From: Brevibacillus sp.
Lineage (GTDB): Bacteria; Bacillota; Bacilli; Brevibacillales; Brevibacillaceae
Reading direction: 5' to 3'
Length of the DNA: 64,000 bases
Assembly: GCA_017656235.1 (NCBI GenBank)
Contig: JACDOF010000010.1
Location: 62,001-126,000 of the forward strand
Shown: one piece after another, positions 12,425 to 51,263 of the stretch
How positions within the stretch are numbered: the first letter of the stretch is position 1
How the letters are laid out: each line of letters starts with the position of its first letter
The notes under the pieces: generated by a model
Database searches by the model: none
What the model saw: the letters and a program-made list of their open reading frames with translations, nothing else
What the model was told of the DNA's origin: nothing
Program-made: the position numbers and the translations under genes

Positions 12425-12476
12425 TCAGGCAAGTTTTGGGCAACCGAAGCGTTCCCCTCAGGCTGCAAATTGTCGT

Positions 12477-12592
12477 GAACACGAGTGCGGGCGTTTTTCG
12501 CGCTCGCTTAAGGTGGCCAACCAGCGAAGAAGCAGTCCAGGACCGCTTTAGACCGGCTCCCACTGGTGGTTGGCAACGGAGTGAGGAAAGGA
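12477..12592. repeat. Repeat family 1, short internally deleted copy
   Basis: This copy holds the left end (ACACGAGT, then GGGCGTTTTTCGCGCTC, then GGTGGCCAACCAGCGAAG) and the right end (CACTGGTGGTTGGCAACGGA, then GTGAGGAAAGG) of the elements at 27.5 and 28.0 kb. The roughly 340 bp between them is missing. Both ends contain CCAACCA and CTC-C-CT-like blocks in inverted orientation. The copy lies directly after the purD terminator. Open frames through it are not thought to be genes. Confidence 0.8.
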
Positions 12593-12633
12593 AAATGGGT
12601 GCTTTCGCCGATCTCAGAGGAGCGGCGTGGTAC

Positions 12634-26668: not shown

Positions 26669-27367
26669 GTGATTGATTTCAGCGGGTGGCGTCACGCCTT
26701 CAAACTGGACCCGGACAAGCAGATCGACGATGAGTGGCTGGAGCGGCTTTGCGAATCGGGAACCGATGCGATTATCGTCGGCGGGACGTTTGGCGTCACC
26801 TATGACAACACGCTTGAGTTGATGGCCAGAATCCGCCGCTTTGCGGTGCCGGCTGTGCTGGAGGTGTCCAGCCTGGATGCGGTGGTGCCGGGTTTTGATG
26901 CCTACTTTATTCCCCTGGTGCTCAACGCGGGCGATCCCGAGTGGCTGCTCAAGCCCCACGTCACCGGTGTACACGAGTACAGCGCGTACATCCATTGGGA
27001 AGAGATTTTCGCCGAAGGGTATCTGATTCTCAACCCTGACGCGGCTGCCGCCCGGCTGACCTCGGCCCGTCCTGTGTCCGATCCCGATGAGGCCAGGGCG
27101 TATGCCCAGGTAGCCGCCAAGTTGTGCCGCCTGCCGATGTTTTACGTGGAGTACAGCGGAAAGTACGGCGATCCGCAGTGGGTGAAGGCATGCAAGGAGG
27201 GATTTGAGGGGCACCTGTTGTACGGAGGCGGAATTCGCACACCGGAGCAGGCCCGCGAAATGGCGGGGATTGCCGACACCGTTGTGGTCGGCAACGTGAT
27301 TTACGACGACCCGCATGCCGCACTGGCAACAGTGGAGGCAGTCAAGGGAATGGCAGAACAAACATAA
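26669..27367 (+). CDS. pcrB: Heptaprenylglyceryl phosphate synthase
   Basis: PcrB couples heptaprenyl diphosphate to glycerol-1-phosphate, giving an archaea-type ether lipid in Bacillales. The 232-residue TIM barrel shows GTDAIIVGGTFGVTYDN near residue 30 and the phosphate-binding loops LLYGGGIRTPEQA and DTVVVGNVIYDD near the C terminus. The GTG start follows GGGAGG. In B. subtilis it directly precedes pcrA; here 1.3 kb of repeats separates them. Confidence 0.93.
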   Translation: MIDFSGWRHAFKLDPDKQIDDEWLERLCESGTDAIIVGGTFGVTYDNTLELMARIRRFAVPAVLEVSSLDAVVPGFDAYFIPLVLNAGDPEWLLKPHVTGVHEYSAYIHWEEIFAEGYLILNPDAAAARLTSARPVSDPDEARAYAQVAAKLCRLPMFYVEYSGKYGDPQWVKACKEGFEGHLLYGGGIRTPEQAREMAGIADTVVVGNVIYDDPHAALATVEAVKGMAEQT

Positions 27368-27403: not shown

Positions 27404-27430
27404 AAGGGTGCTGGACAGTGCCCTTTTTTT
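27404..27430 (+). terminator. Terminator after pcrB
   Basis: AAGGG pairs with CCCTT across an imperfect TGC/GTG extension, followed by seven T. It ends the yerC-pcrB unit just before the repeat block. Confidence 0.6.
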
Positions 27431-27456
27431 CTACTGCGGACAAATCAGCGTAATGA

Positions 27457-27914
27457 ACACGAGTGGGGCGTTTTTTCGCGCTCACTTGCGGTGGCCAACC
27501 AGCGAAGAAGCAGTCCAGGACCGCTCCACGACGATCCGCAGGGGCAGCGTCAAAACGAGGTCTCGCTTTCGACGTGATGCTGCTGCCGCTGCGTTTTCCC
27601 TGCGGATGCGTCGTTTCGCTGGCAGGTTGGCCAAACCGTTCGCTGGCGAAAAACGGCCCGCACTCGCAATGGCGCCCTGTTCGTCCCAAGACAGCGAGTG
27701 TGACAGGAGAGCGGCCATTTTCCGCACGAACGACTTTGCCAACCATCCAAGCGGAGCAAGCCCGAAGCGGGGAATACGGGCGCAACGTGGACAAGCGGCG
27801 GAGCAGCGCTGCTTTTGCGCCCGTCCGCTGCGGGATGGCGAAGCGGACAGTCTGGCTTCACTGGTGGTTGGCAACGGAGTGAGGAAGGAACATGGCCGCC
27901 TCCTCTATCCAGAC
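27457..27914. repeat. Repeat family 1, full-length copy 1 (458 bp)
   Basis: This segment recurs with an offset of exactly 526 bp at 27983-28440, with identical six-frame translations over at least 130 codons. Near its ends are imperfect inverted repeats: CTCACT and CCAACCA with GCGAAG on the left, and CTTCACTGG with TGGTTGG and AGTGAG on the right. The left end is shared with copies at 12.5 and 36.9 kb. It fits a non-autonomous mobile element or a structured intergenic repeat. The open frames inside it show no ribosome-binding sites and no recognised domain. Confidence 0.85.
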
Positions 27915-27982
27915 ATCTTTGGCTGCACGCTTGGAGGTTACGATTAGTTCGTGCCTCTCAGTTTGAAGACAACGTATCGAGG

Positions 27983-28440
27983 ACACGAGTGGGGCGTTTT
28001 TTCGCGCTCACTTGCGGTGGCCAACCAGCGAAGAAGCAGTCCAGGACCGCTCCACGACGATCCGCAGGGGCAGCGTCAAAACGAGGTCTCGCTTTCGACG
28101 TGATGCTGCTGCCGCTGCGTTTTCCCTGCGGATGCGTCGTTTCGCTGGCAGGTTGGCCAAACCGTTCGCTGGCGAAAAACGGCCCGCACTCGCAATGGCG
28201 CCCTGTTCGTCCCAAGACAGCGAGTGTGACAGGAGAGCGGCCATTTTCCGCACGAACGACTTTGCCAACCATCCAAGCGGAGCAAGCCCGAAGCGGGGAA
28301 TACGGGCGCAACGTGGACAAGCGGCGGAGCAGCGCTGCTTTTGCGCCCGTCCGCTGCGGGATGGCGAAGCGGACAGTCTGGCTTCACTGGTGGTTGGCAA
28401 CGGAGTGAGGAAGGAACATGGCCGCCTCCTCTATCCAGAC
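27983..28440. repeat. Repeat family 1, full-length copy 2 (458 bp)
   Basis: This is the second arm of the tandem direct duplication, separated from the first by 68 bp of unrelated sequence. Beyond position 28440 both copies continue with a near-match (TTTGGCTGCACGCT) offset by one base. High identity implies recent duplication or ongoing gene conversion. Confidence 0.85.
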
Positions 28441-28473
28441 ACTTTGGCTGCACGCTGCACAGAGGAGCGCCGT

Positions 28474-28543
28474 CAGCGGGCAGACGTGAAACTTTTTGGG
28501 CCAGGCAGCAGCGCGAGCAGGACTTTTGGCCCCTTCGGGACAC
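28474..28543. repeat. Repeat family 2, copy at 28.5 kb
   Basis: CAGCGGGCAGAC, then GGCCAGGCAGCAGCGCGAGC, then AGGACTTTTGGC and CCTTCGGGACAC match the element at 51.2 kb. It abuts the second family-1 copy, so two repeat families meet in the pcrB-pcrA gap. Confidence 0.75.
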
Positions 28544-28711
28544 AAAATCCTCCAAAAACAGGATGATCGACACCCGGATTGGCCCGTCATGAAAAACTGG
28601 CATGCCGCCCAAATCTGTGCCAAAATAAGAACATATGCTTCGGTTGCGGGCCGCATAGGACCGCGAGCGATGGGTGATTTTTTGTTGACAGGAGAAAGGT
28701 GGCAAGAGGGT

Positions 28712-30994
28712 ATGTCTTCTACACAGGAAAAGATCCTGGCGGGCCTCAACCCGCAGCAGCAGGAAGCCGTACGGACGACGGAAGGGCCGGTGTTGATCCT
28801 GGCTGGAGCAGGGAGCGGCAAGACAAGGGTGCTGACCCAGCGTGTCGCCTATCTGGTCGGGGAAAAGCGGGTAGCGCCGTGGAGTATTTTGGCCATTACC
28901 TTCACCAACAAGGCGGCCCGCGAGATGAAAGAGCGGGTGGCCCGGCTCGTCGGTTCCGGCGCGGACGAGATCTGGATTTCCACCTTCCACTCCCTCTGTG
29001 TACGGATTCTCCGCAGAGATATAGACCGGATCGGATACAATCGAAACTTTACCATCCTGGATGCCGGCGATCAGCTTACCGTGGTCAAACAGTGCCTAAA
29101 TGAGCTGAACCTGGACCCCAAGCGGTATGAACCGCGGGCGATTCTCGCGGCGATCAGCGGGGCCAAAAACGAATTGATCCCGCCTGAGAAGTTTGCGGAA
29201 AAGGCCGGCGATCCGTTTCAACGGGCAGCGGCCCAGGTGTACGAGCGCTACCAACAGAGATTGAAGCAGAATCAATCGCTCGATTTCGACGATTTGATCA
29301 TGCAGACGGTCCGCCTGTTTCGCGATGTACCGGAAGTGCTGGACTTCTATCAAAAAAAATTCCGTTATATCCACGTCGACGAATATCAGGATACCAACCG
29401 GGCCCAGTATGCGTTGATTTCGCTGATCGCCGCCAAGTACCGCAACATCTGCTGTGTCGGTGATGCCGACCAAAGCATCTACAAGTGGCGGGGCGCGGAT
29501 ATATCGATCATTCTCAACTTTGAGCGGGATTATCCCGAAGCCAAACTGATCAAGCTGGAACAGAACTACCGCTCCACCAAAAATATCCTGGAAGCGGCAA
29601 ACGGCGTGATTGCCCACAACGTAATGCGCAAGGAGAAAAAGTTGTGGACCCAAAATCCGACCGGTGACAAAATCTACTGCTACCGGGGAAATACGGAGCA
29701 TGATGAAGCCTATTTTGTCGTAGAGACCATTCGCCAATTACTGGCCACCTACAAGACGTACGACAAATTTGCCGTCCTTTACCGGACCAACGCACAGTCC
29801 CGTGTCGTCGAGGATGTGCTGGTGAAATCCAACATTCCGTACACGATTGTCGGCGGCACCAAGTTTTACGATCGCAAAGAGATCAAGGACATGCTTGCTT
29901 ATCTGCGGCTGATCGCCAATCCTGATGATGACATCAGCTTGACCCGGATCATCAATGTGCCCAAGCGGAGTATCGGCGAAACCACCGTGGAAAAGATCGA
30001 AACATATGCCCGTGCGCACGGCTTATCCATGTTCCGCGCCCTGCAAGAAGTGGAAAGCATCGGGCTGGCCGCTCGTACGACCAATGCCATTCGCGCTTTC
30101 GTGGAGATGATCGAGCAGCTTATGCAGATGGTCGATTATCTCAGTGTCACGGAATTGGTTGAGGAGATGCTGAAGCGGACAGGCTACGAGCAGGCGCTCC
30201 ATGAGGAAAAATCCCTTGAAGCGGCCGCCCGGCTGGAAAATATCGGTGAGTTCAAGTCCGTCACCCAAGAGTTCGAGCGAAAAAGTGAAGACCGCAGTCT
30301 GGTCGCCTTCCTGACCGATCTGGCACTGATTGCTGATGTTGACTTGCTGGATGAGAAGCAGGCCGAACAGGAGACGTCAGAGGGGCAGGTTACGCTGATG
30401 ACCCTGCACAGTGCCAAGGGTCTGGAGTTTCCTGTCGTCTTTCTGATCGGGATGGAGGAAGGCATCTTTCCACACAGCCGGGCGCTGTTCGACGATACGG
30501 AAATGGAGGAAGAGCGGCGCCTCGCCTACGTCGGTATTACCCGGGCCGAGGAAAAACTGTACCTGACGCACGCCTATACACGTACCCTGTATGGACGAAC
30601 CAACAGCAATCCCCCTTCCCGTTTTCTGATGGAGATTCCGGAAGCGCTGCTGGAGGACGTCCATCCGGCAGAGGGAAGCGGAAGCCGGGGATTTGGCCAG
30701 ACTTACCGTTCGGCTGCGGCGGGTTACGCAGGCGGTACAGCTTATGGACGAATGCAGGAGGGCGGTGCCGGATCATTTCGGACTTCCCCCGGCAAAGGTA
30801 CGCTGCCTCAGCACGGCGCAGCCGCCGGAATTGACTGGAGGGCGGGTGACAAGGTAAAGCATGCCAAGTGGGGAATCGGCACGGTGGTCAGGACCAAAGG
30901 CAGCGGTGACGATCTGGAGCTGGACATTGCCTTTCCCAGTCCGATCGGGGTGAAAAAGCTGCTGGCCAAGTTTGCACCTATTGAACGAGTGTAA
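28712..30994 (+). CDS. pcrA: ATP-dependent DNA helicase PcrA
   Basis: A UvrD-family superfamily 1 helicase that moves 3'-5' on DNA in repair and replication restart. The 760-residue protein has the Q motif (LNPQQQEAV), Walker A GAGSGKT near residue 37, Walker B DEYQDTN, the [10 protein letters not shown] motif and [14 protein letters not shown]-like motif V. Its C-terminal end ([14 protein letters not shown]) is the Tudor-like RNA-polymerase-binding part. The ATG at 28712 is chosen over a longer frame that runs into the repeats. Confidence 0.95.
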
Positions 30995-36920: not shown

Positions 36921-36942
36921 ATCAGATTGGCAAACAACGTGT

Positions 36943-37058
36943 CGAAACACGTTTGGGGCGTTTTTTCGCGCTCACTTGCGGTGGCCAACCTGCGAAGAAG
37001 CAGTCCAGGACCGCTCCACGACGATCCGCAGGGGCAGCGTCAAAACGAGGTCTCGCTT
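36943..37058. repeat. Repeat family 1, left-end fragment
   Basis: ACACGTTTGGGGCG and the following 100 bp match the left end of the 27.5-kb copies up to GGTCTCGCTT, then diverge. No right end is found before psd, so this copy is truncated. The rest of the 36921-37286 gap shows only a short inverted repeat (CGTCTAC/GTAGACG) near 37070-37100 and AT-rich sequence that may carry the psd promoter. Confidence 0.8.
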
Positions 37059-37286
37059 CCCCTATCACTTCGTCTACACGCTCCTTTAAAAGACGTAGAC
37101 GATGTGGTAATGTAAAATATGTTCTGATCTGCCCGGACCATGTTCTACACGCGTTCATCTTAATAATCTGACAAGTATCCGGCACGGCCCGACAGAAAAC
37201 GGCTTCCTTACCCGTTGACGGCAATAAACGGACGTCGATCCAAGCAATGCGGCAAGCCGGAACCCAGAAAAGAGGGGAGATGTGCC

Positions 37287-51186: not shown

Positions 51187-51263
51187 CGTTTCGCAGCGGG
51201 CAGACCTGCTTCCTTGCTGGCCAGGCAGCAGCGCGAGCAGGACTTTTGGCTCCTTCGGGACAC
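51187..51263. repeat. Repeat family 2, copy at 51.2 kb
   Basis: The longest copy: CGTTTCGCAGCGGGCAGAC, CTGCTTCCTTGCTGG, CCAGGCAGCAGCGCGAGC, AGGACTTTTGGC and CCTTCGGGACAC. It ends just after the response-regulator stop. The rest of the 50967-51268 gap has no gene. Confidence 0.75.

What the first reader, a model, noticed from the sequence alone, without database searches (positions are those of the whole stretch)
27457..28440. 458-bp direct duplication of an inverted-end repeat between pcrB and pcrA
Two copies at an exact 526-bp offset are nearly identical, while related pieces occur at 12.5 and 36.9 kb. Ends carry CTCACT and CCAACCA blocks in inverted orientation. The element splits a pair of genes that are adjacent in B. 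subtilis. It looks like a non-autonomous mobile element or an expanding intergenic repeat.
Basis: seen in the sequence. Interest (0 to 1): 0.65.

Follow-up and report, generated by a model that had tools for sequence, protein, structure and literature searches.

The report
Hitchhiking repeats that duplicate transcription terminators
The doubled repeat between two bacterial genes belongs to a family of small transposon hitchhikers that settle at the hairpin "stop signs" at gene ends and leave a copy of the stop sign on both sides, which would help explain how many copies are tolerated and how they can chain up.

Summary
Units 27457-27915 and 27983-28441 are identical over 459 bp at offset 526, just after the pcrB terminator. 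The family is dispersed: 65 BLAST pieces in the genome, a lower bound.

The elements are modular MITEs. Their ends match IS1182-family insertion sequences of congener G001. Many copies of both sit between two copies of a locus-specific terminator stem-loop, touching the ends: 22/29 MITEs in G002, 7/13 in G001, 6/9 type-A IS, and 26/35 scorable relatives across Bacillota. Target duplications are 19-39 bp, centred exactly on the hairpin dyad in 52/61. Orthologous sites have one terminator and no element.

Best reading: an IS1182-clade transposase recognises the hairpin and joins the element at its two feet; repair duplicates the whole terminator. Terminator targeting by IS1182 elements is already reported; the MITE family, dyad-centred duplication and chained arrays look like a new variant. 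The window's own pair has no intact duplication, and its identity may reflect later tandem duplication or mis-assembly.

The parts
26669..27367 (+). pcrB, upstream gene
   Evidence: Pfam PcrB E 9.4e-71
27404..27430 (+). intrinsic terminator of pcrB (hairpin AAGGGTGCTGGACAGTGCCCTT plus T-run): the inferred target
   Evidence: folds at -13.4 kcal/mol; a single orthologous terminator stands after pcrB in G001
27430..27443 (+). left terminal inverted repeat of unit 1 (4 mismatches to the motif)
27457..27671 (+). module A, unit 1 (long imperfect hairpin)
27693..27906 (+). module B, unit 1 (long imperfect hairpin, shared with G001 and G002)
27918..27931 (-). right terminal inverted repeat of unit 1
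27931..27958 (+). degenerate stem-loop at the junction of the two units
   Evidence: folds at -12.1 kcal/mol; the same junction is at two other tandem loci
27959..27972 (+). left terminal inverted repeat of unit 2
   Evidence: 1 mismatch to the motif
27983..28197 (+). module A, unit 2
   Evidence: identical to unit 1
28219..28432 (+). module B, unit 2
   Evidence: identical to unit 1
28444..28457 (-). right terminal inverted repeat of unit 2
   Evidence: 1 mismatch to the motif
28458..28545 (+). module C; in several other copies it precedes a further right end and a terminator hairpin
28712..30994 (+). pcrA, downstream gene
   Evidence: UvrD-helicase E 1.6e-101
12459..12598 (+). deleted copy (pieces of A and B)
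36923..37082 (+). 160-bp deletion derivative with both ends, next to a hairpin
51194..51263 (+). module C piece

Best explanation
The repeat is a tandem pair of modular MITEs. They have ~14-bp terminal inverted repeats (CAGNNTGYAGACAA) and an interior built of interchangeable fold-back modules (A, B, C). They are, or were, moved in trans by a transposase of one IS1182-family clade. That transposase picks its target by structure: the stem-loop of an intrinsic terminator. It joins the two element ends at the two feet of the hairpin on opposite strands, and gap repair duplicates the whole hairpin, so the duplication is as long as the hairpin. Shown by sequence: shared ends, duplicated hairpins, dyad-centred duplications, orthologous sites with one terminator and no element. 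Inferred: recognition of a cruciform or hairpin, mobilisation in trans, and that the window's pair grew because each insertion leaves two fresh hairpin targets, later exchange making its two units identical.
For: MITEs and IS types A/B of G001 share ends; both types are IS1182 family, 491.7 and 478.6 bits, cut-off 270. Flank duplication above the 99th percentile of mispaired flanks: MITE_G2 22/29, MITE_G1 7/13, MITE_own 7/16, IS_A 6/9, IS_B 2/3; 26/35 relatives across Bacillota above the maximum of 1190 mispairs. Dyad centre equals the centre of the duplication in 52/61 and is within 1 nt in 58/61; lengths 19-39 bp. A-tract outside the left copy (53% A), T-tract outside the right copy (49% T), 43 elements. 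Single terminators without element at orthologous pcrB, phoU and GDPD. IS type C of G001 has other ends and no hairpins by eye.
Against: No intact IS1182 transposase of this clade is found in the window's own draft genome; its weak hits are IS5- and IS1634-type remnants. Only 9 of 41 clusters there keep a clear duplication, and the window pair itself keeps none. 3 of 9 IS_A, 7 of 29 MITE_G2, 6 of 13 MITE_G1 and 9 of 35 survey elements lack it; recombination or decay is assumed. Cruciform recognition has not been observed, and no transposition was seen.
Confidence: 0.8

Rival explanations
1. The 526-bp doubling is a local tandem duplication, or an assembly product, of an old repeat; transposition has nothing to do with it.
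For: The two units are 100% identical over 459 bp and no intact target duplication surrounds the pair; contigs break at copies.
Against: It does not explain the dispersal, the ends or the hairpins. Two other tandem loci with diverged sequence share the same junction, so tandem pairs are real. It may still be true for the last step in this pair.
Confidence: 0.4
2. The modules are a conserved structured RNA (or a DNA structure with a host function) and the dispersal is incidental.
For: Module B keeps 98.1% paired cells and 113 cells with a change on both sides against 43 in shuffles.
Against: Double changes fall in 8 of 37 pairs and follow species, so few events; module A shows none; no Rfam match over the element; the ends and target duplications mark mobile DNA.
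Confidence: 0.1
3. The flanking hairpins are not target duplications but outer parts that the element carries along.
For: A hairpin abuts nearly every end.
Against: The hairpins differ at almost every locus while the inverted repeats inside are conserved. Orthologous genes have one terminator at that place with no element. The A-tract lies outside the left copy and the T-tract outside the right copy.
Confidence: 0.04

Closest known systems
ISCbo5, IS1182 family, Clostridium botulinum group III (PMC3098183, passages read)
   Same: IS1182-family element; all sites but one are hairpins at gene ends, thought to be transcription stops.
   Different: Reported for a full IS; the passages read give no statement that the whole hairpin is duplicated and mention no MITEs.
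IS1272 and TnSha1, IS1182 family, staphylococci (PMC5678879 and PMC4923244, passages read)
   Same: Target is an inverted repeat or terminator hairpin chosen by structure, not by sequence. PMC5678879 draws whole-stem-loop duplication as hypothetical 'pathway b'.
   Different: There the hairpin is removed or partly deleted and no target duplication is seen; here it is duplicated whole.
Bacterial MITEs and clustered intergenic repeats such as BOX/RUP/SPRITE (PMC10969869, passages read)
   Same: Short non-autonomous elements with inverted ends, intergenic, clustered and nested.
   Different: The review holds no mention of IS1182. Here the target is the terminator itself and the interior is modular and long.

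Membership tests
MITE (non-autonomous DNA transposon) | terminal inverted repeats | tested here: met
   Motif CAGNNTGYAGACAA at both ends; 43 vs control 1 in G001, 11 vs 2 in G002, 175 vs 33 in G000 with one mismatch
MITE (non-autonomous DNA transposon) | target site duplication | tested here: met
   22/29, 7/13 and 7/16 in the three genomes; not intact at the window pair
MITE (non-autonomous DNA transposon) | autonomous relative with the same ends | tested here: met
   IS types A and B in G001; none found in the window's own draft genome
MITE (non-autonomous DNA transposon) | movement in trans by that transposase | not testable with these tools
   needs a transposition assay
IS1182 family (the G001 partner) | transposase matches the family model above its cut-off | tested here: met
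   NF033551, 491.7 and 478.6 bits, cut-off 270
Inverted-repeat-replacing transposition (IS1272 type) | target hairpin lost on insertion | tested here: not met
   The hairpin is duplicated instead
Rfam RNA family | match over the element | tested here: not met
   Window: 0 matches; in three example loci the SRP RNA hit and a sub-threshold hit were all that appeared

The most novel reading that the evidence does not exclude
A clade of DDE transposases chooses its target by DNA shape: it reads an extruded terminator hairpin, places its two strand transfers symmetrically at the feet, and so makes target duplications whose length is dictated by the target (19-39 bp) and not by the enzyme. Each insertion doubles the terminator, so both neighbouring genes stay terminated and two new targets arise, which lets MITEs pile up in tandem at one gene end.
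Probability: 0.65. Interest if true: 0.75.

Novelty: new variant of a known kind. Interest (0 to 1): 0.62.

Why it matters
DDE transposases usually leave a target duplication of fixed length set by the enzyme (general knowledge, recalled). Here the length follows the target hairpin and the cut is centred on its dyad. That makes structure-guided target choice directly testable, suggests a gene-friendly landing site (a terminator that is copied rather than broken), and would explain how repeats hundreds of bases long can accumulate between housekeeping genes. The survey offers ready-made elements in named Bacillus and Peribacillus strains for such a test.

Tried and rejected
Rfam hits for the modules: none over the element. 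Homologues in plasmid and phage records: none. An IS1182 partner inside the own genome: the weak hits lie among IS5- and IS1634-type remnants. IS type C of G001, also IS1182 family, as partner: rejected, because it has other ends and, by eye, no hairpin at its five sites. RNA function from covariation: module B shows species-level compensatory changes but few events; module A none. In one search own copies were first scored with A-B ends only; one search showed that module C can lie before the true right end, so one search repeated the count.

Rows dropped before counts: one search used 29 of 32 G002 loci (3 partial; one search lists 42 matches), 13 loci of the 21 G001 matches, 3 of 5 type-B IS (2 lack a right end), and own copies only if they span most of the query with both ends at 4 mismatches or fewer (16 of 50 joined hits). 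Searches used 38 of 70 survey loci (near full length), 35 of the 38 had an end pair. One search was given 70 + 26 flank pairs (the 26 being survey loci already showing a duplication); 62 passed the score and adjacency filter, 61 of them with a stem; 4 of 23 proteins were too short for the tree. Alignment A4 used 56 of the 65 module-B copies printed.

Papers: passages only were seen of PMC5678879, PMC4923244, PMC3098183, PMC10969869, PMC3281130, PMC4438569 and PMC7911792. No paper on a MITE of IS1182 elements in terminators turned up in searches; the library lacks most subscription journals. What ISfinder or Siguier et al. say on IS1182 targets is recalled, or seen only as cited in PMC5678879.

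Full report
Observation. The duplication is in the sequence as described: 459 identical bases at offset 526 (27457-27915 and 27983-28441), then a 1-nt indel and 15 more matching bases. A BLAST of the 526-bp unit against the window's genome (G000, 3.6 Mb, 31 contigs) gave 65 matching pieces at E <= 0.001; only 40 of 140 first-look candidates were scored, so this is a lower bound. It is absent from the plasmid and phage collections. Congeners G001 and G002 hold shorter relatives matching query 249-445: 21 and 42 matching pieces with a G002 element as query. Of the other 57 relatives searched, two gave marginal matches.

Anatomy. Aligned copies show that the unit is modular. Module A (about query 1-215) and module B (about 237-460) each fold into a long imperfect hairpin, joined by a variable middle; a third module, C, follows in some copies. 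The true ends are inverted repeats of about 14 bp, CAGNNTGYAGACAA. That pattern occurs 43 times in G001 (reversed-pattern control 1), 11 in G002 (control 2) and, with one mismatch allowed, 175 in G000 (control 33). The elements of G001 and G002 consist of ends plus module B, 240-308 bp long. In G000, 41 module clusters show orders such as A-B, A-B-C, C on the far side of A, A-C, and tandem A-B-A-B.

Target. The flanks of the G001 and G002 elements revealed the main point: the same locus-specific stem-loop stands on both sides, touching the ends. Left against right flank scores were compared with all mispaired flanks of the same group. Above the 99th percentile were 22 of 29 MITEs in G002 (20 above the maximum of 812 mispairs), 7 of 13 in G001 and 7 of 16 in G000. 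With module-C ends allowed, 9 of the 41 G000 clusters (28 with candidate ends on both sides) exceeded the 99th percentile and 6 the maximum; G000 copies are more decayed. Outside the duplicated hairpins the 8 neighbouring bases are 53% A on the left and 49% T on the right (43 elements), the signature of terminators that can act in both directions. Neighbours fit: pcrB here, phoU and GDPD genes (named by eye from the protein), the large SRP RNA next to one copy.

Autonomous partner. Searches with PF13751 and NF033551 found 20 IS1182-family transposases over the NF033551 cut-off in G001, fragments in G002 and only weak hits in G000. G001 types A and B (1.5 kb) have the same ends as the MITEs and score 491.7 and 478.6 bits against the IS1182 model, cut-off 270. 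They too stand between duplicated hairpins: 6 of 9 type A and 2 of 3 type B. Two of the three type-A exceptions share a hairpin with each other, as expected after recombination between copies. Type C, another IS1182 subgroup in the same genome with different ends, shows no hairpins by eye at its five sites. The weak G000 hits lie among IS5- and IS1634-type remnants. So the partner is not in the held draft of the window's own genome; mobilisation there is inferred.

Breadth and symmetry. A scan of genome contigs with the type A/B alignment gave 70 named loci. [quoted passage not shown] They come from Bacillus, Peribacillus, Priestia, Ureibacillus, Cytobacillus, Vagococcus, a Lachnospiraceae bacterium, Gemmiger and others. 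A tree of 19 transposases groups the G001 types with Bacillaceae sequences, type C far away. Most of the 9 misses have different hairpins at the two ends. In 61 clean cases the duplications are 19-39 bp long (median 25); their centre coincides exactly with the dyad of the hairpin in 52 and within 1 nt in 58. Of 62 duplications, 42 begin with A and end with T. The length is therefore set by the hairpin and not by the enzyme.

Sites without the element. In G001, pcrB is followed by one terminator (AAGGGTACTCAGCAGTACCCTTTT) and then pcrA, with no element. The phoU terminator carries an IS in G001 but is single in G002 and G000; the GDPD terminator carries a MITE in G002 but is single in G001 and G000. 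The hairpin sequences differ between species, in keeping with recognition of structure. These are orthologous sites in related species, not one strain before and after insertion. In G002 pcrB is not followed by pcrA, so that locus is not informative.

The window pair. The array begins directly at the pcrB terminator (27404-27430) with a diverged left end at 27430. Unit 1 ends near 27931; a degenerate stem-loop fills 27931-27958; unit 2 runs 27959-28457 and module C follows to about 28545. The same junction occurs at tandem copies at C10:60.1-61.2 kb and C1:1207.4-1208.0 kb. I read this as chained insertion (each insertion leaves two hairpin targets), with the perfect identity of these two units due to later unequal exchange, or possibly to the assembly. 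No intact duplication of the pcrB hairpin remains around the pair, so for this very copy the mode of entry is inferred from the family.

Mechanism. [quoted passage not shown] PMC5678879 (passages read) draws this as a hypothetical 'pathway b' while reporting that IS1272 itself removes the hairpin; PMC4923244 (passages) reports partial deletion of terminator hairpins by TnSha1; PMC3098183 (passages) reports the IS1182-family element ISCbo5 at hairpins at gene ends. The present data are many natural insertions that fit pathway b. Cruciform recognition itself is not shown.

Alternatives. A purely local duplication explains the doubling but not the dispersal. A functional structure is not excluded for module B, which keeps 98.1% paired cells with 113 double-changed cells against 43 in shuffles, but these lie in 8 of 37 pairs and follow species. 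Outer hairpins carried by the element are contradicted by the single-terminator orthologous sites.

Verdict. Observation confirmed; the interpretation as a non-autonomous mobile element is supported in substance, with misplaced ends and an unrecognised target. New variant of a known kind.

Noticed in passing
L005:1116-1381 (G000:C11, about 45.8-46.1 kb): A copy of the repeat lies about 120 bases after the gene for large SRP RNA (RF01854, 204 bits), so terminators of RNA genes seem to be hit too.
   Followed up: partly
36923-37082: A 160-bp internally deleted copy that still has both ends, next to a strong hairpin.
   Followed up: partly
L070-L074 (G001 IS type C): Another IS1182-family subgroup with ends GAGGGTGTCCC and, by eye, no hairpin targets; a natural contrast for finding what sets target choice.
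   Followed up: partly
L123 (G000:C12, 14-22 kb): A cluster of broken IS5-, IS1634- and IS3-like transposase genes next to a phage-type integrase-like gene (the last two named by eye).
   Followed up: no
L232:2187-2760 (G002): pcrB in G002 is not followed by pcrA; a different gene follows after two hairpins.
   Followed up: no
L033, L034 (G025, G030): Marginal relatives of module B in another genus of the family (E 5.8e-4 and 7.2e-4), so the fold-back module may be older than the genus.
   Followed up: no
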